64,000 nucleotides of DNA, from positions 111,609,108-111,673,107 of the forward strand of contig CM063283.1 of NCBI GenBank assembly GCA_032173965.1, read 5' to 3'. The notes beneath the pieces were generated by a model. That model was not told where the DNA came from and made no database searches. It saw only the letters and a list, made by a program, of their open reading frames with translations. Both the position numbers and the translations under genes were made by a program. The first letter of the stretch is position 1. Each line of letters opens with the position of its first letter. Source of the DNA: Sitta carolinensis. Lineage: Eukaryota > Chordata > Aves > Passeriformes > Sittidae. This document shows positions 2,286 to 60,683 of this stretch, piece by piece.

Positions 2286-2499
2286 CGTGCATGGAGAGGC
2301 TGCTCCTGTCAATGGTGAAGCAGGAGCTGTGTTCCAAGGCCTCACAAAAAGTGGTGATGACATGGTGGACATCCACTTCTTCTGCAAGCAGCAAATTGAA
2401 ACTTACCACTGTGCTCCCATTAGTAACACCCGTTATCTGCACTTCAATCAGCCCAGCATCCATCTGCTGGAGTACCTCAAGGGACAGAGATTTATGCAT
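2286..2499 (-). CDS. UMODL1: UMODL1: second half of SEA-3
   Basis: The exon is 214 bp (71 codons + 1, phase 0 in) with acceptor TTGTTTTTATTCCAG and donor CACG then GTGAGG. It encodes 'LEVLQQMDAGLIEVQITGV', 'TNGSTVVSFNLLLAEEVDV' and 'FCEALEHSS', close to the recalled 'CQHMDAGGVRMEVVSVTNGS' region. The frame is open. It is the last UMODL1 exon in the window, and the next one (EGF-3) should lie left of base 1. Confidence 0.88.
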
Positions 2500-3833
2500 C
2501 TGGAATAAAAACAAAATGTATGTGGGGATGGGCAGATGGAGCAATTACATTTCAGGCTGTGTACACTGCTCAGAAATCAGTGTAGTGCTTCCTGCTCTGG
2601 AGGGAAGCAGCAGAAAATGACCTTTTGCTTTGTAACATTTTCATTCCAGAGCAGCTGAAGGATGTGGTGCATATTTAACCATGAATATTAAACAAGCCAA
2701 GTGATTAAGATATCTCATGTGTCATTTGGCACAAGCCCTTGCCTCTGGTAAATAAAGGGAGGGAGGAGACTGCAGGGAAGCTCTCTCAAAATGCCTCTGG
2801 GAAGAGAGGCAATCCAACACAAGGAATTACTGGTGGAAGTGAAGGTGCTCCTGACACTCCACACTGCCTCAGAGGGCTCTCCCAGCCCAGGAGCATTACA
2901 ACTTAGAGCAGGTGAGCTTCAAGCTTTGCTTCACAACTGATTTCTCACCAGAGCCAAGCAGAACCCACCTGTTTCTAAATGCCCAGACCAGGGTATCAGG
3001 GGCCCAGGTGGGGGCTACGCCGAGGACACCTCCAACTGCTTCTTCCTCTCCCTGATTTCTGCAGGAAATATCTGGAGCAGCAGGGCTGGATTTTAGCCCT
3101 GAGTTTAAGGCACAGTTTAATTCAGTGTGTAGTGCTCAGGGATGCCAGCAGTGATTCCCACCAGGAAGAGCCCAGGGAAGAGGCAAGTGCTGGGAGCCAC
3201 CAGGAGAAGCAGCCTTGCTTGCCTTGCACCCACGCACAGAGCTGGTGCATTTCCTGCTGGATTCTCACAGCTTTTGCACAGCCCTGTCCCTGCCTGCTGC
3301 ACATTTCCCAGCCCTGACTTCCCCACTGTCTGTTACCCAGCCCTGCAGACAGCCCCAGGATCTGCAGGTGTCCTGCAGCCCTTTCCTGAGCCACCAGAGA
3401 TGATGTGTTTCTGTGCTGGGTGCCAAGGCAATGTGGCACAGAGTAAACCCCCTGGAAACAGCTCCCATGTGCCTGCAAGTGCCACACAGCAAACCCTGGA
3501 GTGTCCCATGGAGCACACAAGCAGAGCTCAGAGGATGCAGACAGCTGGCTCACCTCTAAAAACCTGGGCAGAACATAAACTGTCCTTGTCAAACCCCAAA
3601 TCTCCCATTTCAAGGGCCTCTTGGGCTTCTTCTGCTCTCTCTTTCTGCTGTTTCACAAGCAGGTACTGAAAAGTTGGAGGTCAGACCTAAGTTTTCACCT
3701 TTCATAATTTTTGTCTGAACTTTTCAACATTAAACACAGACAACTGTGACATCCTCTTATCCCACCCTGATTACAGCCTCTTTCACTGTCTATCCTGAAA
3801 ATTTTATTTTATCAAATTTTATTCTTCTTTTGC

Positions 3834-4120
3834 ACAGAATCACTGAGGTTGGAAAAGACCTCTAAGATCATCAAGTCCAACCTGTGACCAATCCCCACCT
3901 TGTCCCCAGCCCAGAGCACTGAGTGCCACCTCCAGGCCATCCTGGGACACCTGCAGGGATGGGCACTCCAGACCTCCCTGGGCAGCCCCTTCTGATGCCT
4001 GAGCACCCTTTCCAAGGGAAAATTCCTCCTGATGTCCAACCTGAGCCTTCCCTGGCCCAGCCTGAGGCCATTTCCTCTTGTCCTGTCACTTGTTCCCAGT
4101 GACCAGAGCCTGATCCCCAC
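3834..4120 (-). mobile_element. CR1 LINE 3' fragment
   Basis: It begins 'cagaatcactgaggttgg' and continues with 'atcatcaagtccaacc', the complement of a CR1 3' end, so the element is on the minus strand. It extends into the upstream part with 'gatgtccaacctgagcc' and ends near 'cttgttcccagtgacc'. 5'-truncated. Confidence 0.75.
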
Positions 4121-4346
4121 TTGGCTACACTGGTTGGTTGGTTTGGTTTGTTTGGTTTGTGTCCTTATTCCTATTTTGCCTCCCAAAGCAGGACCCGGAG
4201 CTTGAATAGCATCAGGGCACATTCACAGTATTTGTATTTAGCCACTAGGTGACACTACAAAACCCTTTTTCCAAGAGACTCCAGGATTTCCCAGCAGGTA
4301 CCACACCCTGGGTTATCAAAATAATGGTTGATGAAGCAGGGCTAGG

Positions 4347-4391
<45 letters not shown>
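4347..4391. repeat. Poly(A) tract, 45 bp
   Basis: An uninterrupted run of A on the plus strand followed by GGGGGG, in a UMODL1 intron. There is no clear retrocopy upstream of it. Confidence 0.9.
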
Positions 4392-4394
<3 letters not shown>

Positions 4395-6951
4395 GGGAAG
4401 GTGGGGAAAGAAACGGAACTTTTTGGAAAGAAATATTCAATATATAATACCCTTGAGTATGGGGAGTTCTTACAAGAGAAGTTATCTTCAGGTCTGACAT
4501 TGTATCTGCAATTTCTATAGCACACAAAGGAAACCTAAGCAGGGAATGCACTGAGAGTCTGGAAACTGGGCATAAGTAAGAAAAAGGTCCAGTAATTTGA
4601 ACAGAATATTGTTTGAAGACTGTTTTTTCACTCAGAGAAGGAAAAAAACACTGTACCTTCAGGGAGAAGGTACCAGAGCACACATCTGCCCAGCCACTCT
4701 CACCAGCAGCTTCCAGGATGTGGAGCTGGATAAACTCAAATTAACAAAAGGGTGAAATTACACTGGAATAGTGAAAGTTCTTTAATCCCTGTTCCTACAC
4801 TCATTCCACTTCAACTACAATCATTTTAGGTGCGTTCAGCTAGACAAACACAGGTTATGTGCCTTCCAGTTGGGGGGGGGGTCACCTTCCTAAGGCATTA
4901 CTGTTTATTAATTTCACAGTTTTTGTCACTCAGCTAAGTTTAAGACACCCAAATTCAAAACAAGCTTTCCACTTAGGAATTTATTGCACCTCAGTGCAGT
5001 GTATTTTCAACTCAAACCTTTTGCTTTCACAACTGATTTTCTTGAGGACAAGACATGATATCCTTCTTGGGGTGTTGTAAAACATGAGCTGAACAAACCC
5101 CAAGACTGAAATACTTTTTTTACCTTTAGCTTGTTGTTTTTAAGTTGCATTACAAGAAAGGTGGGGGCACTGGCCTGGACAATGACAGTGCAGGCTGTCA
5201 CATCAAGTTTTAGCTCCTCATCCTTATTTAAAGGATGATATTTCCATTTCCTGTGCTGCCAATTTAACCACATGGCACTTAAGTGCTGGGGCTAAAGAAC
5301 ATTATACACATTAGGATTTATAAATCCTCTGAATTGTAGATTGTGACTCCAAAGAGGTCTTAAAAAAATCTCTGGCACACTGTATCTAACTGGAACCTGA
5401 GAGTGCTTTTAAAGCTCATAAAATTTTCCTCATTTATTTTAAAAGATCCATTTGTGGTCCTCATACCTGGAAAGAAAATATACAGATCTTTCTGGTCTCC
5501 TAAATTTCCTTTGGCATCTAGAAATACAATATTTGTAATATTATTTACAGCAGCTATGCAATTATAGCCCATTTACAGTGGCTCTGAGGTGGAAGGAATC
5601 AACACTAACACATCTCTCCAGCTGATCCACAAAACCAGAGTGCTGGGAAAAAGAGTTAGTTCCTTTTAATCACAAATGATCATTTTCTGCCTGAAAATTT
5701 GACACCCAGGTAAAACTGACACAAAATTTCATTTTGTTCCTTTATGCAACCATTTTACAATTTTTCCTAAATATATTAGTACCCATGATTTTCTGGACTA
5801 AGATATCTGACTGAGTGAAGAAAATACATTAATTTCAGTCCATTTCAATCCTGTGCTGTTCTGACATAGCCTCGAGCAGAGTGTGGTGCTGAATGAGAGA
5901 GAGGTCAGTGGAGAATTGCTCCCTTTTCACTTAGCTAATCACATCACTCTGGTTTTGTCACAGTTTTTCTGATGTGACAGCTCGGGGCCAAAACAGCTCC
6001 AGGAAAGCTGTGCTCTGCTAACACACCCAGAAAGGTGCAAACCAGTCGTGACCAGCGGGAAACTGATTTGATGTCCAAGAAGGATAAATGGATCACCCTC
6101 TTCCCTCCCTGCAGCTCTGTGACCCCAGCCTGGCCTGTGCCCTGTGCCAGCTGTGCTCCAGTGGCACATCCTGACTCTGTCCCCAGTAAGTCTTGGGAGG
6201 CCTCTGCAGGATTTGAAAATCCATCAAAGTGCCAGTGATGGATTTATCACCACACTGATCTGAAAACACTGACAGTGAAGGGGAGGTAAGGGAGGCAATA
6301 AAGCAGCCCAGCATAACCAGTGGTTTTCCAGGCATGGGTGTGTTTGAGGGAGCACCAGAAGGAACAAACTTGTGACAAATTCACTACAATATTAGATACA
6401 GTCAAAGGCAATGCCTGAGAATCCTGAAAAGGTTAAAGGCACAGCAAATAAAATGTTGTGCTTTGATATCCTGCACTCTAATTAGAAGTGAGGGCAGAGG
6501 TGACTTTTCAAGAAGCCACTTCCTTTCCAGATATGGGGCTACAAAATCCAGGATGATTACAAGAACTGTCAGCCTTGAGGTGCTGCTACAAAGGATAACA
6601 ACCATCATACAGCTAATTAGGATAGTGTGTTCAGGGCAAGGGTATCAGGGCACTTTGCTAGCTCCATTAACTTTCCACCACACCTCTGGAGGAGATCAAT
6701 AATTCAGTATAAGCAGGTATGAGAAGAAGAGGACAGGAAGGTACCAGAGAATCCCCAAATCCTGATCTTCCTCTAAAGAAGGAAGCTGCACACTTCTCCT
6801 GCAGCCTCAGGCAGTCAGGGGAAGCCAAACCTTACAGGTGTGTCAAGGGACACACATGAGTTATTCAGGCTTTGGGGGAAAAGAACCACATACAGGGTTT
6901 TATTGAGGCAGGTAACAGGTCATGTCCTTCTTCATCATCATCATCACTTAC

Positions 6952-7064
6952 ATCATCAACAAAGAGCTGTGCAAGGGTTTGATACTCCTCACTGCTTGTA
7001 TTGCTAAAGCCTGGAGAGTATTCTGTGTTTGTTATCCAAACTGTGCCACTAAGTTTCTGGAAGG
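6952..7064 (-). pseudogene. UMODL1: UMODL1: first half of SEA-3, ancestral acceptor mutated
   Basis: The open frame reads 'KLSGTVWITNTEYSPGFSN', 'TSSEEYQTLAQLFVDD', then donor GTAAGTGA at 6951. It matches the recalled 'KLIGKVRIKNVRYSESF' and 'SSQEYRDFLELF'. By homology the exon should start at 7064, giving 113 bp like SEA-2a and the residues A-F-Q-K-L-S-G. The two bases before it read AA after a pyrimidine-rich TTTTCTTACCTTGC, so the acceptor AG seems mutated. The next AG, 8 bp downstream (exon start 7056), shifts the frame unless the alternative donor of the previous exon is used with it. Confidence 0.75.
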
Positions 7065-7950
7065 TTGCAAGGTAAGAAAAAAGACAATTTCCTCAGGTGT
7101 TTTATGGACTGCAGTCCATGGACAGGTGTGTCACAGTGTCCAGCATTCCTGGCCACATGCATCAACTCACAGCAGCAGCAGGCCAGCCCTCTGAAATGTA
7201 GCCCAAGCCCCTAAAGTCTAAAAATAAGGCATCCAGCATCTTAGTCTGCCCTGTCTGAGCCCAGATGATTCTCAAGAAAGGCACTGACCTCCTGATGAGA
7301 GATGATATTAGATATTACCTCCTGATATTAGACCTAGTAAGTCTAATATCTGCCAGCTCTGCCTTGGATGCTGGGGGATGTCAGGAATGTTGTTCTATTC
7401 AGCACTGGAACTGCTCTCCTAGGCTCAGCTGGTTGCCCCACCACTCCCTCCAGAGGGAAACCACCAAATCCTCCCTGCAGCCTCAGAGGAAGGCTGGGCA
7501 GCTGCCTGAGCTTACACATCTACACTTTGGACAGCTGTGGTGGGATGAGATGAATCCCAACACTTCCCCCCCGGCTCACATCTGCTGAATGACATTCAGG
7601 CAGACTCAAACATTTGAGTTTATTTCCTGATTTCTCTGTGTTTCCCAGTACCTCTGGGTTTGGCATTGTTACTACAGACACTGAAAAGACCAGAGATCTG
7701 TGAAAGGGCTTGTGCAGGCATGGTTTGTGCCTCTGGCATCCATTTAGTGATGATTCCAATCATCCAAAGCTGTGACCATTGCCAGTAAATTGCCTTCACT
7801 CTACCCCCTGCTCCTAAGAAATCATCACTCCTGGCACAGCAAAACCTAATGTTTCAACAGTTTATGTAAATACAGGATAGTCTTCACCAAAAACTTCAAG
7901 GATTTTATCATCTGACTAAGGATTGAGTGTAAAATTCTGAATCAAGTTAC

Positions 7951-8092
7951 CAGTCTTTACTCTCTGGTGTAGCAAACTGCTTTCTTCCTTGTACACAGCT
8001 GGCTGCACCTCCACAGAATAGCAGGCACCAGGTTCCAGCTCTGAGACTGTCAGACTCCTATATTCAGTTTTAATCTGCCTTTTTGCTGCTTT
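7951..8092 (-). CDS. UMODL1: UMODL1: second half of FN3-2
   Basis: After an acceptor CCTTCTGTTTCATAG the exon reads in phase 0 'KTEYRSLTVSELEPGACYSV', 'EVQPAVYKEES' and 'HQRVKT', ending in phase 1 before GTAACTTG. It is the E-F-G strand half of an FN3 domain, close to the recalled 'TSVTLSGLEPGVLHLVEI'. A second possible donor lies 10 bp earlier (AGA then GTAAAG, exon end 7961) and has the better +5 base. The first half of this domain was not found upstream. Confidence 0.75.
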
Positions 8093-10867
8093 CTATGAAA
8101 CAGAAGGAATTACAAAGCTCTGCATAAACTCTGTGGACCACTTTACATCCAAGTTCTACTCACATTAGGAAAACATGCACTTGAACTAGGACGGGTACTG
8201 GAGGAAAAGAAATACTAATCAGGTAAAGCTGTACAGGGGAGGGGAGAAATGCCTGCTTGAAGCAGGCTACTGGAGGAGGGTTCCTGTATCCCAGCATAAT
8301 TCTGATCCCAAAGGAATCCTCATCACTGACAGTCAGATCAAAGGATTTGGGCTTGCTTTTTGCCATGGCTTGTCTTGTCACATGGACACAGGTATTGAGG
8401 GGATAAAACACATTCAGTTGTCTCAGGTGAGAGGGGAAAATATTCTGAACAGTTCTCAAATAATAATATAAAAGTATTTAAAAGATCAGACTATGAAGAC
8501 TTGGCTGAGGTTGAGCTTTCAGGACAGAGATGATGCCACAAGGAGGAGCTGCATATGAAACGTCACCAAACAGGGGCTTTTGCCCTCTGAATTTCTTGCC
8601 CTGGGCTAGTGAGATGCCACTCTGGTGGCTCTTATTCCTTAGGCATAGCCCTTCACAAGCTTCTTTCCCAGCAAAAACACTTGGCTGAATAGTTGATTCA
8701 TCAGGAATATAAAACAAGTTTTTATAAACTGAACTTTTTGTGTGTGCAGAATTCTTCCATTTTTCCCCAGCTGGAAACAGCTTTTATGTGGCTTTTTGTC
8801 AGTTAAAATTAGCTGATTTTATATTTAAAAAAAAAAAAAATCTTTGTTTTCATTAAAAAAAACCCAAATATTTATTTTTGGAGGAGAGAAGACAGCAGCT
8901 GAACAGGGCATTGGCACAGCTGCCCAGGGCAGGGCAGGATGGCAGGAGGGGACACGTGGTGAGCAGGGCTGGGGGGACAAGAGAGGCTGGAGACTCAGCA
9001 GAACTGGCTTTACATGGCTGAAAAAGGCATTTTCCAGGGAGAAAGGAATGAGGGAGCACCAGAAATGAGGCTGGATGAGTGGAGACCACCAGGAAAGCAA
9101 GATCACAGGGGAGAGGAGATAAAGGAGCAGAGGGAAGTGTGACTTGGGATCAGAGAGACGTGGAGGGCACGAGAGACAAAATAAAGACAAGCAGAAGCAA
9201 AACTGAAATAGCCAAACTGAAATAGCCAAACCGAATGGTGACACACTACAGAAAAAAAAAAAAAAAAAACATAATAGTGATGGGCAGAGACAGCAGCATT
9301 CATATCCCAAACAAAACTGTAATTTTAAGACCAAATCTGACTCTCTGAAATATGATTCAGCTCCAATCAACAGAAAAATCCCCTAATTATCTGCAACACA
9401 TCTGCCCCAACCCAAACAGATTAAACCTTCGCCAGCCTTGCTGCTCTCAATTACAGCTCTTGAAGCAGTGTCTCTCAGGTTTCCAGGCAGCTCCTGCCTC
9501 ACAGGGGATTTCTGGAGGACTCTGACTGATCATCCTCTACTGAGAGGCAGGTCCTTTTCCTCCCCAGCTCCCTTAATCCACTCCATAGACAGCTTCTGCT
9601 GCTGTGTCCTGGTGCCAGAGGCTGCAGGAAAAACCAGGATGCGTGGCTAAAGAACAAGCAGCAAATGTTGCCACGAGCCACGCTCAGCACACTCTTTTAT
9701 GAGTTCCTCCTCTTGGAGCTGAAGAAATATAACATCAATAAAAGCAACTGCTAAATTGCCAGGAAGAGGAATCGCTTTCACAAGCAGACTTGCGAAGAGA
9801 AAGTGCCAATTCCTGTAGAAAATGTTATTGATACAGAAAAAAATTGCAGGCGCCAAGAAAACAATTTTGATGTTGAGAAAATGGTTTTAGATGCCTTTTT
9901 CTGAATTTCGGGCGAGGCTTTGCTTCCCCCCACAGGTGCAGGTCCCACGGGGTGGGTGCTCGCTGCGGGTCGGGCTGGGGGCTGCAGAGGAGCCTGGTGG
10001 CCCCAGGGCTCCGGCGTGTCCCTCACTCCAAGGCTGCTCTCCCTCCCCACCTCTCCATCCGCTCCCGGCGAGGCGCCGGGGCCGGGAATGCCAGCGGTGC
10101 CCGTGGCCAGCAGAGCTGTGTCAGGGCCACCTCGAGAGCTGGCCTGGGGCACAGCAGCAGCTGAGTGAGTCCCTGAGGCTCTTTGGTTTGGGAAAAGCCA
10201 AACCAGGACGAGCTGCTCTGTTACTGTGACGCAGATAGGAGCACACAGCAACACACACAACAGGTGTTCAGGCAGAGAAGAAGAAAGGAAGTCCCCAGTT
10301 TATTGTTGACCTCGTATCTCTCAGTTTCTGGACAGTGATCAGAGATTGGACAGAGAAGTTCCCACCTCTCCATCTCCACTGTCACTTGAGAAGTCCATCA
10401 GGTGATATCTTTTACAAAGGAATGCAAACATGATTCTTGTTTATCTTACAATTCATGAGAACTGACTCCACTCTACTAAAACAAATCAGAAGGCTGATTT
10501 TCAGGGACAACACCGCTCCCGCCCGGCTGAGCCCACCGGGGAGTTCGGGACAGCGGGCTCGGAGCGGAGCTGCCTTGTGGCCTCGGTGCCCACCCTGCTG
10601 GGGGTGACCCCCGTGGCCTTGGGGCTGCTGGCCTGGTTGGCACCCATCCGTGGGGCCAGACCTTCTTGCCAAGGCGCTGGAGGAGCACTGCTGGGGCTGG
10701 GGGACCCTTGTTTGTGCGCCAGGACCCGCGCAGCAGGAGCAGCATGGCGCTGCCTGGCCCGCGGCCCAGAGCAGCGGGAGCAGGGCCAGCAGGGCCCCCT
10801 TCCTCAGCGGCAAAATAATCCCTGCTGGGCCTGGCTCCGGGAGCCATGGCCTCAGGGAGAGCATCCA

Positions 10868-12151
10868 CAGCCTCACCTGGGACACAAACACAGCACAGCC
10901 TCACCTGTGACACAAACACAGCACAGCCTCACCTGCGACACAAACACAGCCTCACCTGGGACACAAACACAGCACAGCCTCACCTGGGACACAAACACAG
11001 CCTCACCTGGGACACAGACACAGCCTCACCTGGACACAAACACAGCCTCACCTGGGACACAGCCTCACCTGGACACAAACACAGCCTCACCTGGACACAG
11101 ACACAGCACAGCCTCACCTGGGACACAAACACAGCACAGCCTCACCTGGGACACAAACACAGCCTCACCTGTGACACAAACACAGCCTCACCTGCGACAC
11201 AAACACAGCCTCACCTGGGACACAGACACAGCACAGCCTCACCTGTGACACAAACACAGCCTCACCTGGGACACAAACACAGCCTCACCTGTGACACAGC
11301 CTCACCTGTGACACAGCCTCACCTGGGACACAAACACAGCCTCACCTGCGACACAAACACAGCCTCACCTATGACACAAACACAGCCTCACCTGGGACAC
11401 AAACACAGCCTCACCTGTGACACAAACACAGCCTCACCTGGGACACAAACACAGCACAGCCTCACCTGTGACACAAACACAGACAGCCTCACCTGTGACA
11501 CAGACACAGCACAGCCTCACCTGTGACACAAACACAGCCTCACCTGTGACACAAACACAGCCTCACCTGGGACACAAACACAGCCTCACCTGGGACACAA
11601 ACACAGCACAGCCTCACCTGTGACACAAGCCTCACCTGGGACACAAACACAGCCTCACCTGGGACACAAACACAGCCTCACCTGGGACACAAACACAGCA
11701 CAGCCTCACCTGGGACACAAACACAGAACAGCCTCACCTGGGACACAAACACAGCCTCACCTGGGACACAAACACAGCACAGCCTCACCTGGGACACAAA
11801 CACAGCCTCACCTGGGACACAGACACAGCCTCACCTGCGACACAAACAAGAACAGCCTCACTGTGACACAAACACAGCACAGCCTCACCTGTGACACAAA
11901 CACAGAACAGCCTCACCTGGGACACAAACACAGCCTCACCTGGGACACAAACACAGCCTCACCTGGGACACAAACACAGCCTCACCTGTGACACAGCCTC
12001 ACCTGGACACAGACACAGCACAGCCTCACCTGGGACACAAACACAGCACAGCCTCACCTGTGACACAAACACAGCCTCACCTGGGACACAGACACAGCAC
12101 AGCCTCACCTGTGACACAAACACAGCCTCACCTGGGACACAGACACAGCCT
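10868..12151. repeat. 23-bp minisatellite, about 53 units
   Basis: A tandem array whose plus-strand unit is 'agcctcacctgggacacaaa' plus 'cac'. Many units carry an extra 'cagca'-type 5-bp insert (28 bp), and some lack part of it ('acctggacacag'). The middle triplet varies (GGG, GTG, GCG, ATG). I counted about 53 copies of 'cctcacctg' or its variant. On the UMODL1 sense strand each unit contains CCCAG then GTGAGGC, which resembles both a splice acceptor and a donor. Because 23 is not a multiple of 3, all frames stay open and give spurious repeat ORFs. Confidence 0.95.
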
Positions 12152-12519
12152 GAAATGGGGCCTGGGGGTGCGTGAGGAGGCATCAGAGTCTCACCTGAAA
12201 ATGGCACCGAGGCCGCTCCGCCCGCCCTGGCAGCACGACAAAAACAGGTCTTGGGTGTTCAGGAACACCGAGTAGAACCTGTGGGTTTCATGGGGTTGAA
12301 CCTGGTTTGTGCCGACACAAAGCAGCAGATTGGATTCCTGGGTCTCCTGTTCTGGTTGGCAAGGCCGTGGATCAGCTTGGTGGGAGGAAATTAGCCACAG
12401 ACTTAGCGAAAGAGGGGAAAGTACTTCTTGCAGTTGTCAGGCTTATCAAGGAGGATCTCAGAGAGAGTTCACCTGAATATATTTATTTATGTAGATATTT
12501 ATGCAATTTTTAATATTTT

Positions 12520-12611
12520 AACTATTTTATATATAAATAATTATATATTTATATATAAATATATATTATATATATTTAAATAGATATCTTTTTGTATATA
12601 ATTCAAATACA

Positions 12612-12645
<34 letters not shown>
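12520..12645. repeat. AT-rich stretch with (TA)n microsatellite
   Basis: Almost pure A/T sequence that ends in a (TA)n run of about 26 bp at 12618-12643. Confidence 0.85.
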
Positions 12646-12648
<3 letters not shown>

Positions 12649-12798
12649 AGACAGGTCACATATATACCCCTTCAGCCACAGACTGCAAAGGTGCAATTAT
12701 AAGAACAGATGCTATAAAAGCAGATGTTCAACTCCACAACTTACTCCAATGTTTCATGGTTACAAAAAAAACCCCAATCATGCCAGCCTTTTTCTCAC

Positions 12799-12936
12799 CC
12801 TCACAGTTTCTTCCAGGTCGGGATGGATTGGTATCTGTGGTTGTCTTGCACCTGCACGCATAGGAGCCCATCAGATTGATACACTCTGCAAACACAGAGC
12901 AGTCATTCTCAGCATGGGAAGCACATTCATCCCAGT
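12799..12936 (-). CDS. UMODL1: UMODL1 exon 10: EGF-like domain 2
   Basis: The exon is 138 bp, phase 1 on both sides, with acceptor GTTTTGGTCCCACAG and donor GAGG then GTGAGAAA. It reads 'DWDECASHAENDCSVFAEC', 'INLMGSYACRCKTTTD' and 'PSRPGRNCEG'. All six EGF cysteines and the D-x-D-E-C calcium-binding start are present, in contrast with EGF-1. The recalled mammalian exon is 'DWDECVDSAEHDCS' to 'GRACEG'. No lesion was seen. Confidence 0.9.
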
Positions 12937-14408: not shown

Positions 14409-14440
<32 letters not shown>

Positions 14441-16295: not shown

Positions 16296-16515
16296 CTTCT
16301 ACTGCAGTGTTTTGCTGATCCACCACAAGCACGGAGCCATTGTGCAGGTAGGAAAGCACTGGGGCAAATGTGGAAGCATCCACTGGAAACTTGGGATCCT
16401 GCATGGTGATTCTGAGTCTCACAATGATGCTTCCTGCTGCCAGGGATTCAATCTGCACTTTCAGCTTCCCAGATTTGTACAAGGCAGAAATGTTGGGTGG
16501 AAATTAATTTTTAAG
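16296..16515 (-). pseudogene. UMODL1: UMODL1 exon 9: second half of SEA-2 with in-frame stop
   Basis: The exon is 220 bp (73 codons + 1, phase 0 in) with acceptor CTCTCCCTTTGCTCAG and donor GAAG then GTAATT. It reads L-K-N-stop-F-P-P-N-I-S-A-L-Y, then 'KSGKLKVQIESLAAGS' and 'VRLRITMQDPKFPVDAST'. The stop is TAA at 16504-16506, where the recalled mammalian protein has serine (ESSFPP). One substitution from TCA would give it. A weak AG further in (before 'LKVQIE') could in principle bypass the stop but would delete conserved residues. Confidence 0.85.
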
Positions 16516-19013: not shown

Positions 19014-19126
19014 CTCTGTAAGCAACAGTCTTGAAAATTCCTCATCTGCTGAGCTGCTGGAATTATGGAAATCATCAGTGAAGTTGTAGTTGAGAATCCT
19101 CATAGTAACATCAAATATCTTGGCCT
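19014..19126 (-). CDS. UMODL1: UMODL1 exon 8: first half of SEA-2
   Basis: The exon is 113 bp (2 + 37 codons, phase 1 in, phase 0 out) with acceptor GTGTCCTACAG and donor ACAGAG then GTAAAG. It encodes 'EAKIFDVTMRILNYNFTDD' and 'SADEEFSRLLLTE', matching the recalled 'VFEVTIKIVNHNLTE' and 'DFSRQLLHE'. It has the same length and phase as the homologous boundaries of the SEA-3a exon, which supports duplication of an FN3-SEA-EGF module. Confidence 0.85.
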
Positions 19127-20548: not shown

Positions 20549-20803
20549 CTGTTTTAACATTTTGGTGGGAGATAATGGTTTTTCCACAAGTTTCATAGCT
20601 GATCTCTACTGAATACATCACACCTGCTTCCAGGTGAGGCACATCTATTTGCATTTCCTCTGTCTTCAGGTTTTGCACAGTTTCATTGCCCTTGGACACC
20701 TGGACCTGGAAAGTGTGGTTCAGAGTGGAACTGACAAGCCAGGACATTTCAAAGCTGTTGCTGGTAACGTTGAGGATTCGATGGTTTGTAACTGCAGAGG
20801 GAT
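20549..20803 (-). CDS. UMODL1: UMODL1 exon 7: fibronectin type III domain 1
   Basis: The whole FN3 domain lies in one 255-bp exon (2 + 84 codons + 1). The acceptor is GGGACTGCAACAG and the donor is ACAG then GTAAAGAAA. Key strands are 'ILNVTSNSFEMSWLVSS', with the B-strand tryptophan, 'HTFQVQVSKGNETVQ', 'VPHLEAGVMYSVEISYETCG' and 'HQNVKT'. It matches the recalled 'VLNVTSDSFQVSW' and 'LEAGVLYRVKTSYQGCG'. Several N-glycosylation sequons (NVT, NHT, NET) are visible. The frame is open. Confidence 0.9.
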
Positions 20804-22973
20804 CTGTTGCAGTCCCAGGAAGAGTGGCACAGAAAAAGCAACATTTTACTTTTAAAGCCTTGGGCTGCTCTAAATCCACTACAGACAAGCACTTTGACAG
20901 TCAATAGGGGAAGGTTCTCTTTATGTCAGGACAGAATCTGCCCCTCTCCCACCAGCAGATCCCCTCATCCATGACCCATCCCACTAGAGTGACTGATTTA
21001 GCATTTAACCTTTTTATTTCCTTTTACTATATGCATTTCTGTTGAATCATGGAATCACAGAATAATTTGGGCTGGAAAGTACCTGAAAGATCATCCAGTT
21101 CCACCCCCTGCCAAGGGTAGGGACACTCTCCACTCAACCTGGCTGCTCAGATCCCAGTCCAACCCGCCCTGAACACTTCCAGGGGTGAGGCAGCCACAAT
21201 TCCTCTAGACCTAATCTCCTCCAAATCTCCAGTCACATAAATAATCAGCCCATGAGCTACAGGTACAAGCAACAGGAATACATTTGGAAGAGTGACTCTG
21301 GGTACTCTACATGTGTTGACACCTGCTTTAGCTCCTGTCACTTTAATCACCAAGGTGCACCCATTCAGGCAGAGGTTGTCTGGATTTATCCTGGAAACCC
21401 CCCCAGATCCCAGTAAACAGAGGCTGGGGGAGAGTGGCTGCAGCAATTCCCCTGTTATTCCATTCTAGTCCAGTGCAATCATTGTCACATCAACAGGAAC
21501 AGACAGGGCCCTTCAGGGATGATTCCTCTCCTGGGAGGAGGAGGTTTAAATCGGGTAGGATGAGTTGCCCTGCAGCAGAGCCAGTCTGGTTCAAGAGAGA
21601 GAGAGTCCCAGACAAGACAGCTCTGCTGGGGAGAGCTGGGGCCAGGTGAGATGAGCATCACAGCCCACACCAACCCAGAGACCATGGCATGCTGCTGCCA
21701 CAGTTCAGGTCTTTCATGCTAAGGTTATAAGAAAAAAGGGTTGCTTTCATAAATTGCTTCAATAAAGCACAATTGTTTCCAGCACTCTGAGCCAGGTGGC
21801 TGCCAGACGCCCCCAAAGCCACTCCCCACTGCACTAGAGGGGCCTCAGTTGAATTCCTCTGGCTTCAGCTTCCATCAGAAGTTGTGGATAAAGATCAAGG
21901 ATATCCAGCCTGTCTCTCTGAACTCTCAAAGAACAACATAAATCTATTTCCTCCCACAGAAGAACAGGGTGTTGTTAAAAGGATTGTAATAACTCTGCCT
22001 GAAAGGGCTGGATCACCCATATAAACACAAATCTACTGAGGTTTGTTCCCATCACAAATCAAGAAAACATTTATTAAAATCCAGGGTTACTAACAGCACC
22101 CAGCATCTGTAGATTGGTTGGTTATGGGCAAGTGACTTGATTTCCTAACAGAAGGAGAGCTACTGCCAGTGTTAACAGCAGTTACTGAACTTGGAGTAGA
22201 TGCTACAATGCCTAGGGGAAAATCATATTATCAAAGAGTTAGAGTATTTCTAAGAAAGCAAATCCAAAATAATGCCATTCATGTTTTCCACATGAAAAGC
22301 AGTAATAAAAGTAATATAAATAGAAAATAAAAGTATTATCATATCACAGAAGCATAAAGTAATACATCATCTTAATTTTTGAGATTAAGGGATTGTAAAA
22401 TTGTTTTCTAACTAAAGCATTGAATCTGCAAGCAGTTATTTATCTCATTATCTTAAAGCCTATTAGCAGGCCCATTGATGTCTGTGGGCTGTAAGTATAT
22501 TTTGCTGAACTGGTACCACAAGGAATTATTTCAGCAAGTGCCAAACTCCATCTGCTTGCAGGAGAGGGATCAGCAGCAGTGCAGAAGCTCAGGGTGGGGT
22601 CATACAACCACTGAGTCTGGGCTGCAGCCAAAACAGAAAAAAAGAAAACTGTAGAAATAATATCATTAATTGTTTCTCAGGAGGATGGGGAGGTGCACTG
22701 ACAGCAAGTGGCTTGCTCTGAGAAGCAGTAGGGTCTGAAGTTTTAGGTTTTGGCAGGTGAGTGAGGATAGCTGAGGGTGAAATAAATAGCAAGGGACTGT
22801 GAAATAAATACTCTGCATTCCCATAGGTAACAGGTTTATGTGGCATTTTCTCCCAAGAGGAGGAGAAGGGGCACTTATACTCCATAAATTCCTGCAGGTG
22901 ACTCCTGCAAAGGAGCACAAAGTTCTGCAGGAACATCCTCAGCACTTCCCAAGGTGAGACCTACATTTCTTAC
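20804..22973. other. UMODL1 intron with one CR1 fragment
   Basis: CR1 at 21045-21205. The rest is unique, with no exon seen. Confidence 0.5.
21045..21205 (-). mobile_element. CR1 LINE 3' end
   Basis: 'aatcatggaatcacagaata' is followed by 'tcatccagttccaccccctg' and 'tccaacccgccctgaac', the complement of a CR1 3' end. Confidence 0.8.
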
Positions 22974-23114
22974 CTTCCTTCCTTGGGCTCAGCCAGTGAG
23001 GGGTGACAGTGGCATGTTCATGCTGAGGGTGGCAGCTGTAAGAACCCTCCAGGTTTACACAGCTGCTTTTCTCAGGGCAGGCATTGAATTCAGCATAGGA
23101 GCATTCATTGACAT
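22974..23114 (-). CDS. UMODL1: UMODL1 exon 6: EGF-like domain 1, lacking Cys5 and Cys6
   Basis: This calcium-binding type EGF exon is 141 bp, phase 1 on both sides, with acceptor TTCTTCCCAG and donor GAAG then GTAAGAAA. It starts 'DVNECSYAEFNACPEKSSC' and continues 'VNLEGSYSCHPQHEH'. Cys1 to Cys4 are present. The expected fifth cysteine after 'GSYSC' is replaced (CHP instead of CxC). The sixth, expected at the start of the next exon, is also absent ('DPSAV' instead of 'DCPPV'). The frame is open. Confidence 0.85.
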
Positions 23115-23959
23115 CTGGGAAGAACAACACACCTTGCACAGATATTGGGAGCAGCACCAAGACTGATCTGCACCATGTGTAGACCAGGCTCTGGCTATGA
23201 TAAATTCAGTGTAAATCTGCAGTAATGCTGTTAAATCCATCCTGAATGTTATCACCCTATCAGTTTTTACCCCAATTCTTTGGAACTAGAGGACAGTTAG
23301 GGGCAGCTACTGCTTACACCTGTAGAATGGCATCCAAACCTAAGATGTGAGCACAGGAGGAAGGAGGACTGCCAGTGATTTCACTGAAAGCTGGACTGAG
23401 TAAACACAGAATAAGAAGCATTGAGAATGGTGCTTATGGATGCATTTCAGGAGTGAAAATGTTCAGATAACTGCAGATCAATATGAAGATTGACGTAATT
23501 TAAAATTCTTATATTGAAATGTTTATGTAACATTTAAAAAGTATGTAGTAATGTGCTATAGTAATTAACAGAATATAAATATGAGTTGTTCCATGCAAGC
23601 TACTAAAAGTAACATGGCAACAGAATATATCTGCTTCCCAAGAAAACAGGTTTTTTAAGAGACTGTTTAATACAACTAATGATTGTGCTGCAAATATACA
23701 CACATTTGCTTTTCTATCTGAAAAAACTATGTTACTGGGAGAAAATAAATCTGAGGGTTCAGAAGCATTCCTTTCCAAACTATTTACTCCAAAATAATCA
23801 TTAACTCTCCGTCCTACAACAGAAAGGTCGGGGCCATGTTTGCAAAGTTTGCAAGATCCTCTGTGCTATCTTTGAAAGCAAATTAATGGTTATATAAGCG
23901 AGATCCCAGGGGAAGAGGGACGAAACCCCCTAAAATGTGGCAGGATTACAGTCAGTGCC
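23115..23959. other. UMODL1 intron
   Basis: AT-rich unique sequence, nothing recognised. Confidence 0.5.
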
Positions 23960-24144
23960 CTTGCACGTGTGTGTCAATCACTTCGTACACGCGCCTCGCC
24001 ACGGGAGGAGGACACCGCTGCCGGAGGAGCTGGGTGGGGCATCCCAAGGAGGAGCTGGGAGGCCACTGTGCCACCATAGATGTCCCCACTCTTGCTCTGG
24101 ATGTGGTGCACAGAGGCATTCAGGGGCTGCAGTGCACCAGTGAC
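23960..24144 (-). pseudogene. UMODL1: UMODL1 exon 5: second half of SEA-1, frameshift and lost donor
   Basis: After a good acceptor (CCTGTTTTCCAG) the exon reads 'VTGALQPLNASVHHIQ' and 'SQLLLGMPHPAPPAAVSSS', then stops making sense. The conserved end 'VARRVYEVIDTHVQ' appears in another frame. The conserved segment between 'AVS' and 'RVYEV' is 19 bp, against 27 bp expected from the recalled protein, so the exon is net 8 bp short (185 bp, expected 193). At the end, where the sequence should read CAAG then GT, it reads CAAG then GGCACT at 23959-23954, so the canonical donor is gone. Both changes fall in the last third of the exon. Read as found, a TGA follows the shift. Confidence 0.82.
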
Positions 24145-25344: not shown

Positions 25345-25451
25345 CATGGAGTGCAAAAGGCGGGAATGATTCAGAAGGTGGGAATCCACCCGGATTAATT
25401 CATTAAAATCCATTTTCACCAGCACTGTCACATTGTACCAGAATGTCCTCC
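25345..25451 (-). CDS. UMODL1: UMODL1 exon 4: first half of SEA-1
   Basis: The exon is 107 bp (2 + 35 codons, phase 1 in, phase 0 out). The acceptor is CCTATGTTGCAG and the donor is ATG then GTATGTAC. The product includes 'WYNVTVLVKMDFNELIRVD' and 'LLNHSRLLHSM', nearly identical to the recalled mammalian 'WYNVTILVKMDFKEL' and 'LLNHMRLLHSL'. It is the first strand and helix of a SEA-type module. The frame is open. Confidence 0.85.
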
Positions 25452-25858: not shown

Positions 25859-26020
25859 CCTCTGGCATGGGATCCACACAGCCTGCTCCTTTGGATGAGC
25901 TGCAGCATTTTTTCAGCCCTGGACATTCAGTATCGAACGTGCAAGGGCAATCAAATGTTTCCATATCCTTCACTGGACAAATACCAGGTCTTGAGGCAAA
26001 TACACTGGATCTATTGAGTG
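25859..26020 (-). CDS. UMODL1: UMODL1 exon 3: WAP four-disulfide core domain
   Basis: The exon is 162 bp (2 + 53 codons + 1) with acceptor TTTTTGTTACTTAG and donor GAGG then GTATG. It opens with a linker, 'SSVFASRPGICP', followed by 'FDCPCTFDTECPGLKKCC' and 'GAGCVDP'. The CC pair and the PGLKKCC motif are the WAP signature, a fold found in secreted protease inhibitors and in matrix proteins. The recalled mammalian counterpart reads 'IDCPGLEKCC'. No lesion was seen in this exon. Confidence 0.85.
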
Positions 26021-32000: not shown

Positions 32001-32431
32001 TGAATTACTTTTGAGGAGAAAGCTCCTGGTGTAAATGCAGGCAGGCTGGGAGCAGACACTGCACCAGACAGTGAATTATTGCTCTTGGCCAGGGATATTG
32101 GCCTGAAGCTGGACAGGTAATGAGCCCTTGGAGGGCTAACAAGCAGGTGCCTTCCTCAGGCTCTCCTGGAACTTTAGTGAATTTGTGGCTAAAGGTGGCA
32201 AAGAACAAGAATCAGGAGCTTTAATCTGCTGTCTACTCCTTGCCGTGTTGGACAAAGTTTATTGTACATTATTTTAACTTCATTTATTTCAGTGAATCGG
32301 AACCTATGGCGTAGAACTGAATTAAGCCTTTACATATCTCAGCTGAAGTGAATCTTCTTCCATAAGAAGCATTTATTTCCTCTCTTCCATCTATTTCCTC
32401 TCTTCCTCTCTTCCATCTGCCTAAAACTCAC
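26021..32431. other. UMODL1 intron between WAP and EMI exons
   Basis: 6.4 kb of mostly unique sequence with a possible CR1 piece at 28305-28460. Minus-strand open frames at 28347-28883 have no domain that I recognise. Confidence 0.5.
28305..28460 (+). mobile_element. Probable CR1 internal fragment
   Basis: 'ggagagaaggctgaggggga', 'tgatcaaggcttacaaaatc' and 'gagctggttttcaccagagc' resemble the region upstream of the CR1 3' UTR. The characteristic terminus is missing, so this is less certain than the other copies. Confidence 0.5.
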
Positions 32432-32681
32432 CTAGAGAACAGTAGAGTCCAACTTGTTCGTATCCTTCACAGCAATCTGTGAGGGTGATGGATTCAGGGA
32501 CTTCAACATTCAACACTGTGAAACTGTGTTCTGTAGTGTGTCTGGGGACACACCATCCACGGGCTCCACCCTCCACAGGATGTGTTCTTCTCATAGGACT
32601 TCTGGTAGGCAACCATTTTTAACACCCTTTTGGTCAGGGTGTAGTTGCACAGGTGGTACCCTAGCAAAAAGAGGCCTTTTT
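32432..32681 (-). pseudogene. UMODL1: UMODL1 exon 2: EMI domain, frameshifted by 7-bp duplication
   Basis: The EMI domain is a cysteine-rich extracellular interaction module. It starts after a good acceptor (TTTCTGTTTCCTAG) and runs 'GYHLCNY', 'SCGGWSPWMVCP', 'HYRTQF', then in another frame 'VEVPESITLTDCCEGYEQ'. The frame breaks at a perfect tandem duplication on the plus strand, ttcaaca at 32502-32508 and again at 32509-32515. With both copies the exon is 250 bp. With one copy it would be 243 bp, which is exactly 2 + 80 codons + 1 and matches the phase-1 junctions on both sides. Reading as found, a TGA follows at 32503-32505, giving a product of about 88 residues. The donor (CTAG then GTGAGT) is intact. 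Confidence 0.88.
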
Positions 32682-35552
32682 CTAGGAAACAGAAACAGGA
32701 AAAAAAGGGATCAGCATTAACTTGTCACCCCAGAGCAGAAGTTCCTGCAGTATCCAGTGAAAAACTGTTATAAGAAAGCAGTGACAGAACCAACACAGAT
32801 TAATGATTCCCAGGAAGGCTGGTGTTGGGAAGAACATTGCTTAAAAAAACACACAGGAAAGAATTGGTAGTGACTGCTTGTCATCACTTTGGGCATGAAA
32901 GGATGAAGATTCACAGAAAATTCAAAGGAGTTCTTGGTGCCTTCAGGTGCAAGGTGGAAAAAAGGGAAATTTAACTCAAGTTAATATTAAGGAAAATTAT
33001 GTATGTTAATATACATTAACAGTAGAGCACAATAGGCACTTCCAGGGCAGAGTCCTCCAAGTAGTTTAAAAGCCCACTCCAGCCTCCTGCTGCCAAAGCC
33101 TTCATCACTCTCCACTGACTTTAAAGGGAACAAAGGGTGAGGAACTCATGGGCAGATGAGTCACAGTAGATGTCTGGAATAAGACATCCTTCAGACATCA
33201 CCCTAGGCTAAAACTGGGTACTCATACATCACTGGGAAGCACTTCCAGGTGTCTGACACAAAGAATTCCTGGAGATCCTGTGCTGCCTCTCTGCATTTGT
33301 AACAGACCTTGTTGATCCTGCCACTGGAAACCTGCAGTGGTTCATTGACTTTGAGTATAAACAAGTCAGTGATAAGGTCATTAACTGCATCATTTCACAC
33401 AGGTCTGGGGATGGGACTCAGCTTCCAGAGTTCTGAAACCATTCCCGATGAGGAGCAAAATTGTTACGTGCTTTACTCAAAACTGAAATACTTCAGCAGG
33501 GATGGGGGAAAAAAACCAACACCAAACAACACAAAGAAACCCCAACAACAGCAGCAAAAGCAGATGGAGTCTAAGAATTAGCAGTAAGCAACCTACAGTC
33601 ATATCACAGACATCAGGCTGGCTCCTAATGAGATGCTATAGAAGCCAGAGGGGCTGAGTCACCCTGAGTCCCATTTGGGAAACAGATCGGATGGAATTAA
33701 AATGCCTGTATCATCCTCTAGTCAAAGCAGAAGAAACTTTAATAAGGATAAATATGAATTAGCTGCAGAGATTCAAATGTAGCAGGCCTGGGTTTTTTTT
33801 TCTGAGAGCTCTGAGGGCATCAGGGTCAGCCAACAGACAGACTGAAGCTAACACAATATACACAACAGGCATACAATTAAAACATTCACAACTTATCTTA
33901 TTTGTACAACTTATCTCCTGCCTGAAAACACAAAACATGTTACAAACAATTCAAGAAGAAAAAAACAAAACAAACAAACAAAAAAAAGAATTGCCAGGCT
34001 TTTAGAAATCCTGTGCTTTTATCACATTTAGCTTTCCAGCTAAACAAAAGACATTTGTGCAGTTTGAGCAGGACTGGGAAAGGAGCTTCGGAGAGGACGA
34101 TCCATTTGTAGTGCAGGGACAGGCCAGAATAAAACATGGAATAGACCTGGTGTCTAGAAAGGCTCTGGAATCCCAGCCCTGCTGTGCCTCGCTCCTCTGT
34201 GCCTTCCTCCTGCAGCAAAAGGCAGAGCTGATGCCGGGCTGGGCTCCAGGGAGGGCGTGTGAGAGCCCAGCAGGCTCCAGGGACTCTGTGCTGCTGCCTG
34301 GAGCAGGTCAGCAGGAAAACACTGAGAGGAAAGCATCGCTGGAGCCCCCATCCCTGCCTCTTCCTCCGGGCCAGCCTCCAGCAGGGCACCTCTGTGTCCC
34401 TGGGGCTCCGGGCACTGCAGCTCACGGCTCTGCACAGCCCTGAGCTGCTCCCTGTCCCCAGGCAGGGAGTGGAAGGAGCTGCCCAGAGGGACAGGAGGAC
34501 ACCCAGCCTGGGTCAGAGCCTGGCTCAAGCCCAGACCCTGCCTGAGCCCCGAGAGGATCCCAAAGTTCTGACCAGGACATGGCTGTGCAGGAGGAAATGG
34601 AAGGAGAAGTGAGCCAGAGCAAGGTGACTTCTCCCTCTGGCTAACTTTAGGATAACTCTGATAAAAAGAGAAAGGAAAACAAACGTGGGTTCTGGAGCAA
34701 GAATCAGAGATCAAGGGCTGCTTTTTATTCAAGGCGTTTGATCCATTAACACCTCACATGAGGCACAAGTGCCTGACAAGAAGCAGGCAGCTGTCATTGC
34801 ATTTTGGAAAGCATTCCCTCACCATGTGTTAAGATGGCTCCAAGAATACCTTTCTCTGCAAAAGCTTCTAGGCATGTAGGTGTGGGGGGCAAAAATCTTG
34901 CTTCAGCTTCTTCGTTGGTTTTTGGTCTTTTTGTTGTTGTTGTTTTTTGTTTTGTTTTGATTTGTTTTGTTTTTTCCTATTAGTTTGTAACCTGAATGGC
35001 TAAATGACCAGAGTGGAACAGAATTAATACCTAAATAATTTTGGTTATAGCCTTTCCCTGGAGAAAGTGCACAAACATCTGTTGTGACCAGGGAAGGAGG
35101 CAGGAGCAGGACAAATATTGTTCTATGTAAACCAGAAACTCCTGTATTAAGGAATCAGAGAGTTATAGTATAAAATCGGGTTAGAGGGGAGTAGGACAGG
35201 TAAGAAGCAAGAGCTCAGCCTTGTTCCTCATCCCTATGATCCCTCCCTTTCTCCAAAGCTCATGTAAAGCCTGGCAAGAGCAAAGCAGGACTGGAAGGGA
35301 AAAACTGAGTAAGGAAACACTGAGGATTCATGCTGTCCATGCAGAGCTGAGGCTGCAGCGAGGACGTGGCCCTGGAAAGCTAAAAATTCCAGTGTCAGCT
35401 GAGCTGGCTTAGTCTCTACAGCAATGTGCAACATAAATACAGGTATGAAACTGAGAATAAGATGGTGTTGAATTAGACACAGTTTATAATTGGAAGCTAC
35501 AGCTGTCAGAGCAGATATGAAGTCATATTTCATACTTAAACATTGACACTAG

Positions 35553-35601
<49 letters not shown>

Positions 35602-37254
35602 AAGTGGGTATAGAATGAGGCTGCCAAAGCCTAAAGAGAAGCTCTGAGATAAGGCTGTGGTGGTACAAAAAGATGCCCTCAGTGCAAGAAGTTGGACTGA
35701 AGGTGTCAGGGAAAGGTGCAGCACCACCAACCTTTGCCCCATCCATCACTTCCATATGGTTCAAAACAAGCTTTGACACTCACAGAGTTCAATTATTTTG
35801 CTGACAGCAGTTTGCTGCTGAGCAATGTGGCTTGGATCAATTTGGGCTCTTTAGCAAATTGGCTTTCTGTTCTCATTACTCCCATCTATGGGATTATGGC
35901 ACAATCAAATGGAATTAAAATGCACTGGCTGTGGTTTTCAGCAACTCAAAGCTGAAGTCAGTGGCACAGCAGAAGGCAGTCACCTGCCATTAGTATGGGT
36001 ATTTTACACCTATCATTTCTGGATTTTAGAATTTTGTCTCAGAAACCACCAGCTTTCAGCACCATCAGGGAAAACATCAATTTTTTTTTTTTATGTTAAG
36101 AAAGAGCATAAACAATTAAAGCAAACCCTTTATTAATAGAAACAAACACTGAGAGGAAAACCTGGGAGCAAAGGCTGCACAGGAACAGCCTTCTTGGAAC
36201 TCAAGGTTAAACCCAGAGAAGAACTGAGAGCATGACCAAAAAACAGCAATAAAAAAATGCTTCAGAGCATTTATGCCACAGCCAGAGCTGCAATTCAGGA
36301 AACTTCACCTCTCAGGTGTCACAGGAGCCACCATGAGCTGGGATCTGCAGGATCTTTTCTCACTGGAGAGCAGTAACATGGAAAGTTAAGCCCCCTTCTT
36401 GTCTTGACATGACCTTAGAAACAAACTGTTGGAACAGGTTCATAGAGGGCAGATTCAAGCTCAGTTTTGAAATGCAAATGCTCCAAAGCATGAAAAAAAA
36501 TGGATCATGGGCTTGATTTTTCTACACATTCCAAATTTTAAATTCAACACCATTTATTTTAAATGGCACTAGGATGGAAGTTCTATTGGCCCTAATCTCT
36601 GCAAACCTCTTTTCAGCTGTAGCTTTGACAGAATAACAGAAAAGTCTGCAAGGTTCTAAGAAATATGGTTTATATTTAACTGAGACTCACAAAACCACTT
36701 AAGTCAAGAAAAGCAATGAAGAGCAGTCAAAAATCACAATATTTTCTCATCTAAATGAGTCAAACCAGAAATGAAGAGTAAATCATGAGTTCATTTAGCA
36801 GTTACAGTTGGGTTAGGGTTTTTCAAAATTACAGCCCATACCACAGATGAAATTTAAGACTGTTTTCTACAGCTTCATCTTATTCCCTCCCTAGGAATTT
36901 GCCAGGCACATTACTACATAATTTCCCCCTTAAAGCTTATTTTAAAGACAATTCTCATAAAAAATTTGCACAATTTTTTTTGTGCAGAAATTCCGCACAA
37001 AGAAGACAAAGCAGAAATTCTCCTTGTTCATTTCTGGCACAAAGGATATGATGAGGGGATGAAAGATTGGGGACAAAGGTTGCATTTTAGCTTGGTTAGA
37101 TTTTATCTGTTCAATTATCAACAGAGGATCCTTAAATGGTGGCTGGGACATTGCCAGTTCTCCAGAGAGTGGCCACCTTGGCTGGTTTGTTTCAGAGAAA
37201 TATCTACCCAACATCCAAACTAAGCTGTCCTCTGGCCAGGTTTGCATCACTCAC
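32682..37254. other. UMODL1 intron 1
   Basis: Unique sequence with a (TA)n microsatellite at 35556-35595. A GC-richer patch at 34190-34610 has overlapping open frames on both strands but no recognisable domain. Confidence 0.5.
35556..35595. repeat. (TA)n microsatellite, about 40 bp
   Basis: An uninterrupted TA dinucleotide run, flanked on the right by cacacac. Confidence 0.9.
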
Positions 37255-37342
37255 CTGTAATTTCATTTCCTCTTCCCTGCCATGTGGCTGCCCAGAGGAT
37301 GAGAACAGAAATTAGAGGGATCCTGGCCATTGCAGGGCCCAT
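37255..37342 (-). CDS. UMODL1: UMODL1 exon 1: signal peptide
   Basis: The sense strand reads from an ATG at 37342 with A at -3 and G at +4. A second in-frame ATG lies at 37330. The peptide MARIPLISVLILWAATW is a short basic start followed by a hydrophobic core, which is a typical secretory signal. The exon holds 29 codons plus one base (phase 1) and ends in a strong donor, CAG then GTGAGTG, at 37254. The spliced product continues 'GNEIT-EKGLFLLGYHLC', which agrees with the recalled mammalian junction 'TEKGLSLLGYQLC'. The 5' untranslated region and promoter were not identified. Confidence 0.8.
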
Positions 37343-60560: not shown

Positions 60561-60683
60561 GGGGAGAGGCGGAGCGGGAAGCGGAGTTCCGTGCTCCGGC
60601 TTCCCCGCGCTGCGGCGCCTCGGGAGCCCGTTACCCGCTGCAGCGGGCGTGAGGGCCGCGTGAGGGACTGGTGGTGTGAGGGC

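What the first reader, a model, noticed from the sequence alone, without database searches (positions are those of the whole stretch)
2286..37342. UMODL1 appears to be decaying in this bird-like genome
Independent lesions of different kinds occur in at least four of thirteen recognised exons (duplication, deletion, nonsense, splice-site loss), and one expected exon was not found. The remaining exons are open with matching phases. Together this suggests recent or ongoing loss of an olfactory-associated membrane protein gene. The loss reading is an inference, and the lesions are visible in the sequence.
Basis: partly seen in the sequence, partly recalled or inferred. Interest (0 to 1): 0.85.

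Follow-up and report, generated by a model that had tools for sequence, protein, structure and literature searches.

The report
Broken UMODL1 gene in a songbird
In this songbird genome the gene for uromodulin-like 1, a cell-surface protein that in mammals and fish is tied to smell and reproduction, is broken by several independent mutations, one of them an inserted relic of an old virus, while the gene looks whole or nearly whole in the other birds compared, so it looks like a recent natural gene loss that still needs checking against raw reads.

Summary
The minus-strand gene is UMODL1: 19 exons from window 37342 to about 9.6 kb beyond the window's left edge. All four named lesions are present: 7-bp duplication, 8-bp deletion, nonsense codon, acceptor AG->AA. 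The 'missing' exon exists (10876-9964) but is split by a 294-bp solo-LTR-like insert with 6-bp target duplications; a second copy lies about 23 kb away. Exon 5 also lost its donor (GT->GG); exon 12 has a GC donor and the last exon a probable 4-bp deletion.

Four 1-base UMODL1 lesions are therefore discounted. ZBTB21 and the sampled part of C2CD2 show no other kind of lesion.

Amino-acid evolution is at most mildly relaxed, so the loss, if real, is recent. Reads, RNA, the species name and a genome-wide search for a second copy were not available.

The parts
37255..37342 (-). UMODL1 exon 1, start codon and signal peptide, intact
   Evidence: tblastn to P0006/P0004, donor gtgagt
32432..32681 (-). 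exon 2, EMI domain, frameshifted
32502..32515 (-). lesion: 7-bp tandem duplication TGTTGAA x2
   Evidence: absent from orthologs
25859..26020 (-). exon 3, WAP domain, intact
   Evidence: Pfam WAP 1e-07
25345..25451 (-). exon 4, first half of SEA-like module 1, intact
23960..24144 (-). exon 5, second half of SEA-like module 1, frameshifted
23994..24003 (-). lesion: 10 nt where orthologs have 18 (net 8-bp deletion)
23958..23959 (-). lesion: donor GT -> GG after exon 5
   Evidence: 111 of 120 orthologs match a V.D[VI][DN]EC junction
22974..23114 (-). exon 6, EGF_CA domain, intact
   Evidence: Pfam EGF_CA 2.4e-07
22096..22212 (-). possible in-frame cassette exon (present in the Anomalospiza model P0006, not in P0004)
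20549..20803 (-). exon 8, fibronectin III domain, intact
   Evidence: Pfam fn3 4.8e-07
19014..19126 (-). exon 9, first half of SEA-like module 2, intact
16296..16515 (-). exon 10, second half of SEA-like module 2, with nonsense codon
16504..16506 (-). lesion: TAA stop where orthologs have Ser
12799..12936 (-). exon 11, EGF_CA domain, intact
   Evidence: Pfam EGF_CA 3.1e-07
10219..10512 (-). lesion: 294-bp solo-LTR-like element (TGTTGT...TAACA), target duplication GAGCGG/GAGCAG
10728..10748 (-). discounted: 1-base frameshift in exon 12 (short C run)
10021..10041 (-). discounted: second 1-base frameshift in exon 12
9962..9963 (-). probable lesion: GC where a GT donor is expected after exon 12
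   Evidence: boundary inferred from proteins only
6952..7064 (-). exon 13, first half of SEA module 3, open
   Evidence: Pfam SEA 1.6e-05, just under the cut-off
7065..7066 (-). lesion: acceptor AG -> AA; next AG is 8 nt downstream and would shift the frame
2286..2499 (-). exon 14, second half of SEA module 3, intact

Best explanation
This is the orthologous UMODL1 locus of a songbird, and it is a unitary pseudogene of recent origin: the gene sits where its neighbours ZBTB21 and C2CD2 say it should, keeps its introns and most of its reading frame, but cannot make full-length protein. Any normally spliced transcript would shift frame in the EMI exon about 86 codons in and end shortly after, leaving at most a secreted stub and a likely target of nonsense-mediated decay (inference). 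Later lesions in three SEA-like modules and in the mucin-like exon, including a solo LTR inserted into coding sequence, would each be disabling on their own or hard to splice round. Shown: the lesions in this assembly and their absence from the orthologs compared. Inferred: that they are real, fixed, and that no other copy does the work.
For: Identity: 432 hits, the 120 best listed, named uromodulin-like 1/UROL1 or hypothetical proteins of birds; exon by exon. Synteny: ZBTB21 and C2CD2 upstream. Lesions. LTR in exon: with contiguous coding sequence on both sides. Controls: ZBTB21 1,040 codons aligned, no stop, two 1-base frameshifts only; C2CD2 476 codons in 11 exons, no stop or frameshift, 20 of 20 splice sites canonical. 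Mild erosion of near-invariant sites: 14 of 455, rank 7 of 121, against 3 of 264 (rank 43 of 121) for C2CD2 and 1 of 503 (rank 64 of 99) for ZBTB21.
Against: No raw reads or RNA. The assembly seems error-prone for 1-base indels. Overall protein distance is not raised relative to C2CD2: the window ranks 5th, 10th and 9th of 16 with three outgroups, and its terminal branch (0.080) equals those of Cinclus and Zosterops. 33 of 33 conserved cysteines are kept. A second copy elsewhere could not be searched for with UMODL1 itself (service unanswered). Several boundaries are inferred from proteins, not from ortholog DNA.
Confidence: 0.9

Rival explanations
1. Assembly error: the gene is intact in the bird and the lesions are consensus errors.
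For: ZBTB21, a conserved neighbour, has two 1-base frameshifts (A5->A4, and one base short in a C-rich stretch) in this assembly; four UMODL1 lesions are of the same 1-base type (exon 12 twice, ZP exon, exon 18).
Against: A 7-bp tandem duplication, an 8-bp deletion, a nonsense substitution, two splice-site substitutions and a 294-bp mobile-element insertion with target duplications are not of that type, and neither control gene shows any of them. Control coverage is small: two genes, one of them partial.
Confidence: 0.04
2. A null haplotype that segregates, or a private allele of the sequenced bird, with intact copies in the population.
For: One haploid assembly cannot tell; amino-acid divergence is only mildly raised.
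Against: Six firm independent lesions plus a mutated target duplication (5 of 6 bases alike) need time to accumulate on one haplotype, which is more easily done after fixation (inference).
Confidence: 0.05
3. The broken copy is a duplicate and a working UMODL1 lies elsewhere.
For: Not searched: the genome service stopped answering.
Against: The locus is the syntenic one, next to ZBTB21 and C2CD2; the Pfam ZP model found 19 matches genome-wide, one of them this gene; the other 18 were not identified.
Confidence: 0.03
4. Remodelling, not loss: splicing skips the damaged modules and a short in-frame protein remains.
For: Every damaged exon inside the window lies in a frame-preserving unit (exon 2; 4+5; 9+10; 12; 13+14), read from the phases; WAP, both EGF and FN3 exons are intact.
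Against: Needs five skips at once; 1-base frameshifts in two ZP exons and a probable 4-bp deletion in the last exon would also have to be harmless or artefacts; no RNA.
Confidence: 0.03

Closest known systems
UMODL1 / olfactorin of other songbirds (e.g. Anomalospiza P0006, Oenanthe P0004, Pseudopodoces P0002)
   Same: Exon order and domain order (signal, EMI, WAP, SEA-like, EGF, FN3, SEA-like, EGF, mucin-like, SEA, ZP, transmembrane, tail); about 88-90% identity over 1,066-1,071 shared residues.
   Different: Here at least six disabling lesions; the three models named cover all aligned exon blocks or nearly so (23 of 120 listed models have every block, 87 lack only or also exon 1).
Unitary pseudogenes, lineage-specific gene losses in birds (kind recalled, no call)
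   Same: Orthologous intron-bearing locus, several independent lesions, no intact allele seen.
   Different: No second species with the same lesions could be examined, so the extent of the loss is unknown.
Solo LTR of an endogenous retrovirus (classification by structure; family not identified)
   Same: 294-298 bp, TG...CA ends, 6-bp target duplications (GTACAA perfect in the second copy), two copies 3.4% apart.
   Different: Lies inside a coding exon.

Membership tests
UMODL1 orthologue | Best sequence matches are UMODL1 proteins over the whole length | tested here: met
   exon by exon
UMODL1 orthologue | Domain set EMI, WAP, EGF_CA, FN3, SEA, ZP, transmembrane | tested here: met
   Pfam hits for WAP, EGF_CA twice, fn3, SEA (SEA just under cut-off); ZP; EMI, other SEA-like modules and transmembrane exon by alignment only
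UMODL1 orthologue | Next to ZBTB21 and C2CD2 (human chromosome 21 order recalled) | tested here: met
   ABCG1 on the other side was not found in 50 kb by motif
Unitary pseudogene | Disabling lesions that orthologues lack | tested here: met
Unitary pseudogene | Lesions are not assembly errors | tested here: inconclusive
   Two control genes lack the non-1-base kinds; no reads
Unitary pseudogene | No working copy elsewhere in the genome | not tested
   The genome search did not complete
Unitary pseudogene | Relaxed selection | tested here: inconclusive
   near-invariant sites eroded, rank 7 of 121; overall rate not raised
Unitary pseudogene | No full-length protein or transcript | not testable with these tools
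   no RNA data
Solo LTR | TG...CA ends, target-site duplication, other copies | tested here: met
   the duplication at the UMODL1 copy has 5 of 6 bases alike
Solo LTR | Belongs to a named retroviral family | not tested
   no repeat library on hand; genome search for more copies unanswered

The most novel reading that the evidence does not exclude
The lesions mark modular remodelling rather than death: all damaged exons in the window fall into frame-preserving units (EMI; three two-exon SEA-like modules; the mucin-like exon), so a bird could still splice a short signal-WAP-EGF-FN3-EGF-ZP olfactorin that keeps the WAP-FN3 part thought to act on FGFR1, provided the 1-base ZP frameshifts are assembly errors and the last exon is read through another exon-19 donor (a gtgagc 8 nt downstream of the normal one would keep frame).
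Probability: 0.04. Interest if true: 0.65.

Novelty: new member of a known kind. Interest (0 to 1): 0.4.

Why it matters
[quoted passage not shown] Olfactorin attracts migrating GnRH neurons and its knock-down disturbs olfactory and GnRH axons in zebrafish (PMC8874799, abstract and passages). A human infertility study maps a male-infertility variant near UMODL1 and cites reduced fertility in mice lacking it (PMC12081293, passages and reference list). A bird that lives without it would be a natural knock-out for testing whether these roles are needed outside mammals and fish. In chicken, UMODL1 is listed as pituitary-enriched (PMC5148799, one table passage). No paper on a bird UMODL1 loss turned up: UMODL1 with 'passerine' gave 0 papers, with 'birds' 6 and with 'pseudogene' 9, judged by title and abstract start, and in one case a passage; the library lacks most subscription papers.

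Tried and rejected
Gene loss in all birds: rejected, the 120 listed hits span tinamou, emu, ducks, fowl, owls and songbirds; but 97 of 120 models lack or differ in at least one exon block, 87 of them exon 1 (many are marked partial), and 13 have two or more such blocks, so models are not proof of intact genes.

All 12 visible lesions taken at face value: rejected after ZBTB21 showed two 1-base frameshifts. The 1-base frameshifts in exon 12 (two), exon 15 (G run, L001 about 9314) and exon 18 (T run, L001 about 5548) are not counted.

Strong relaxed selection: not supported. An early count that put the window second of 121 was biased, because the other rows helped to define their own invariant sites; the leave-one-out count gives rank 7. 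Rate ratios to C2CD2 are ordinary.

Species identification: failed. The tree puts the window near the base of Passerida beside tits and Sylvioidea with node support 65; C2CD2 is equally distant from many oscines. Mitochondrial genes could not be fetched.

ABCG1 as a second neighbour control: motif search in the fetched 184 kb found nothing. The structure database gave only uromodulin-type ZP domains and single-domain matches. Pfam found no EMI hit for exon 2 and no SEA hit for exons 5, 10 and 14; those identifications rest on bird proteins. Structure prediction was not used.

A rough age: two LTR copies differ at 10 of 294 sites, about 1.7% each; with 2-3 substitutions per 1,000 sites per million years (recalled, not looked up) that is some 6-9 million years for the element's spread, with no claim that the UMODL1 copy is that old.

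Full report
What the gene is. The window lies at G000:C1:111609108-111673107 of an unnamed 1.03-Gb bird assembly. A search with a protein stitched from minus-strand exons gave 432 hits, the best 120 of which are bird proteins, mostly named uromodulin-like 1 or UROL1. tblastn with two of them (Anomalospiza P0006, Oenanthe P0004) lays out the gene exon by exon: exon 1 at 37342, then EMI, WAP, SEA-like, EGF, FN3, SEA-like, EGF, a Pro/Ser/Thr-rich exon, SEA, and, outside the window in L001, a mucin-like/ZP exon, three more ZP exons, a short exon and the transmembrane/tail exon ending at about 9.6 kb beyond the window's left edge. I count 19 exons, 13 of them in the window, plus one possible cassette exon at 22212-22096. 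Upstream lie ZBTB21 and C2CD2, the order known in human (recalled).

Lesions of kinds not seen in the controls. Exon 2: perfect 7-bp tandem duplication at 32515-32502. Exon 5: net 8-bp deletion at about 24003-23994 and donor GT->GG at 23959-23958. Exon 10: TAA at 16506-16504 where orthologs have Ser. Exon 12: a 294-bp element at 10512-10219. Exon 13: acceptor AG->AA at 7066-7065, with the next AG 8 nt downstream, out of frame. Probable: exon 12 donor GC at 9963-9962, and a 4-bp shortfall at the start of the last exon in L001 near 606, where 58 of 120 orthologs matched by my pattern have five residues between CKS and KRE, which the window's normal splice cannot give.

The insert. The element begins TGTTGT and ends TAACA, and has a second copy about 23 kb downstream of the gene's exon 12 (L002:7211-7508), 298 bp long, flanked by a perfect 6-bp repeat GTACAA. 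The UMODL1 copy is flanked by GAGCGG and GAGCAG. The copies differ at 10 of 294 aligned sites with 4 gap columns. With the two flanks joined, the coding sequence runs on in frame against three orthologs across the insertion point, so the element sits in an exon, not an intron, unless an intron was lost exactly there.

Lesions that I discount. Four 1-base frameshifts: two in exon 12, one in the G run of the ZP exon 15 and one in the T run of exon 18 (coordinates). ZBTB21, 34.6 kb upstream of UMODL1 exon 1, has two 1-base frameshifts in the same assembly, one in an A run and one in a C-rich stretch, against bird and turtle orthologs. ZBTB21 otherwise has no stop in 1,040 codons, and 1 of 502 near-invariant sites changed. 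The simplest reading is consensus error in runs, so such lesions in UMODL1 prove nothing.

Controls for the other kinds. C2CD2: 476 codons in 11 exons, about two thirds of the protein, with no stop or frameshift and 20 of 20 splice sites canonical (sites read by eye from the printed contexts). UMODL1: 33 of 36 splice sites canonical. The rest of C2CD2 could not be fetched. Two control genes are a small sample.

Selection. Over the columns compared, the conceptual protein is 88-90% identical to many songbirds. Its terminal branch in a 56-tip tree is 0.080, like Cinclus and Zosterops. Distance to three outgroups relative to C2CD2 is ordinary: 5th, 10th and 9th of 16. At sites nearly invariant in other birds it differs at 14 of 455, rank 7 of 121, median 1.2%; C2CD2 gives 3 of 264, rank 43 of 121, and ZBTB21 1 of 503, rank 64 of 99. 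All 33 strongly conserved cysteines are kept. Together: little time since constraint was lifted, or a short stretch of this branch. This neither proves nor excludes loss; the lesions carry the case.

How it would work. A normally spliced mRNA shifts frame in the EMI domain at codon 87 or so and soon meets a stop, so at most a secreted N-terminal stub is made and decay of the mRNA is likely (inference). Every later damaged exon lies in a unit whose removal keeps frame (exon 2; 4+5; 9+10; 12; 13+14; phases read), which leaves a narrow door for a short module-skipped product; that needs RNA.

What was not possible. After and two fetches the genome service did not answer 26 calls, so there is no genome-wide search for a second UMODL1, no count of LTR copies, no mitochondrial gene and no species name. 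The tree only says songbird, early Passerida, beside tits and Sylvioidea (node support 65).

Verdict. It is a new instance of a known kind, lineage-specific gene loss, of moderate interest because of the gene's links to smell and reproduction.

Noticed in passing
L003:8976-8990 (window coordinate about 72981) and about window coordinate 74882-74934: ZBTB21 reads with two 1-base frameshifts against bird and turtle orthologs; probably assembly errors in base runs, and a warning for any frameshift call in this genome.
   Followed up: yes
10866-12151: A 23-bp minisatellite of about 53 copies abuts the start of UMODL1 exon 12; many units carry CCCAG|GTGAGG, i.e. an acceptor directly followed by a donor-like motif, as in recursive splice sites (motif recalled), so the exon's own acceptor seems to have been copied many times.
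   Followed up: partly
60663-61398 and 58813-59180: Two further minisatellites (25-bp unit, 29 copies; 22-bp unit, about 17 copies) in and beside a GC-rich stretch at 58-62 kb that may be a promoter island.
   Followed up: no
L002:7211-7508: Second copy of the solo-LTR-like element with perfect 6-bp target duplication GTACAA.
   Followed up: yes
L009:2532-3869: A minus-strand open frame of 446 codons, Ser/Thr/Pro-rich with tandem repeats, mucin-like.
   Followed up: no
and one search lists: Zebra finch and Lonchura appear among the C2CD2 hits but no estrildid finch among the 120 listed UMODL1 hits, although their sister group Vidua/Anomalospiza does; this may be clustering, the list cap or another loss.
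   Followed up: no
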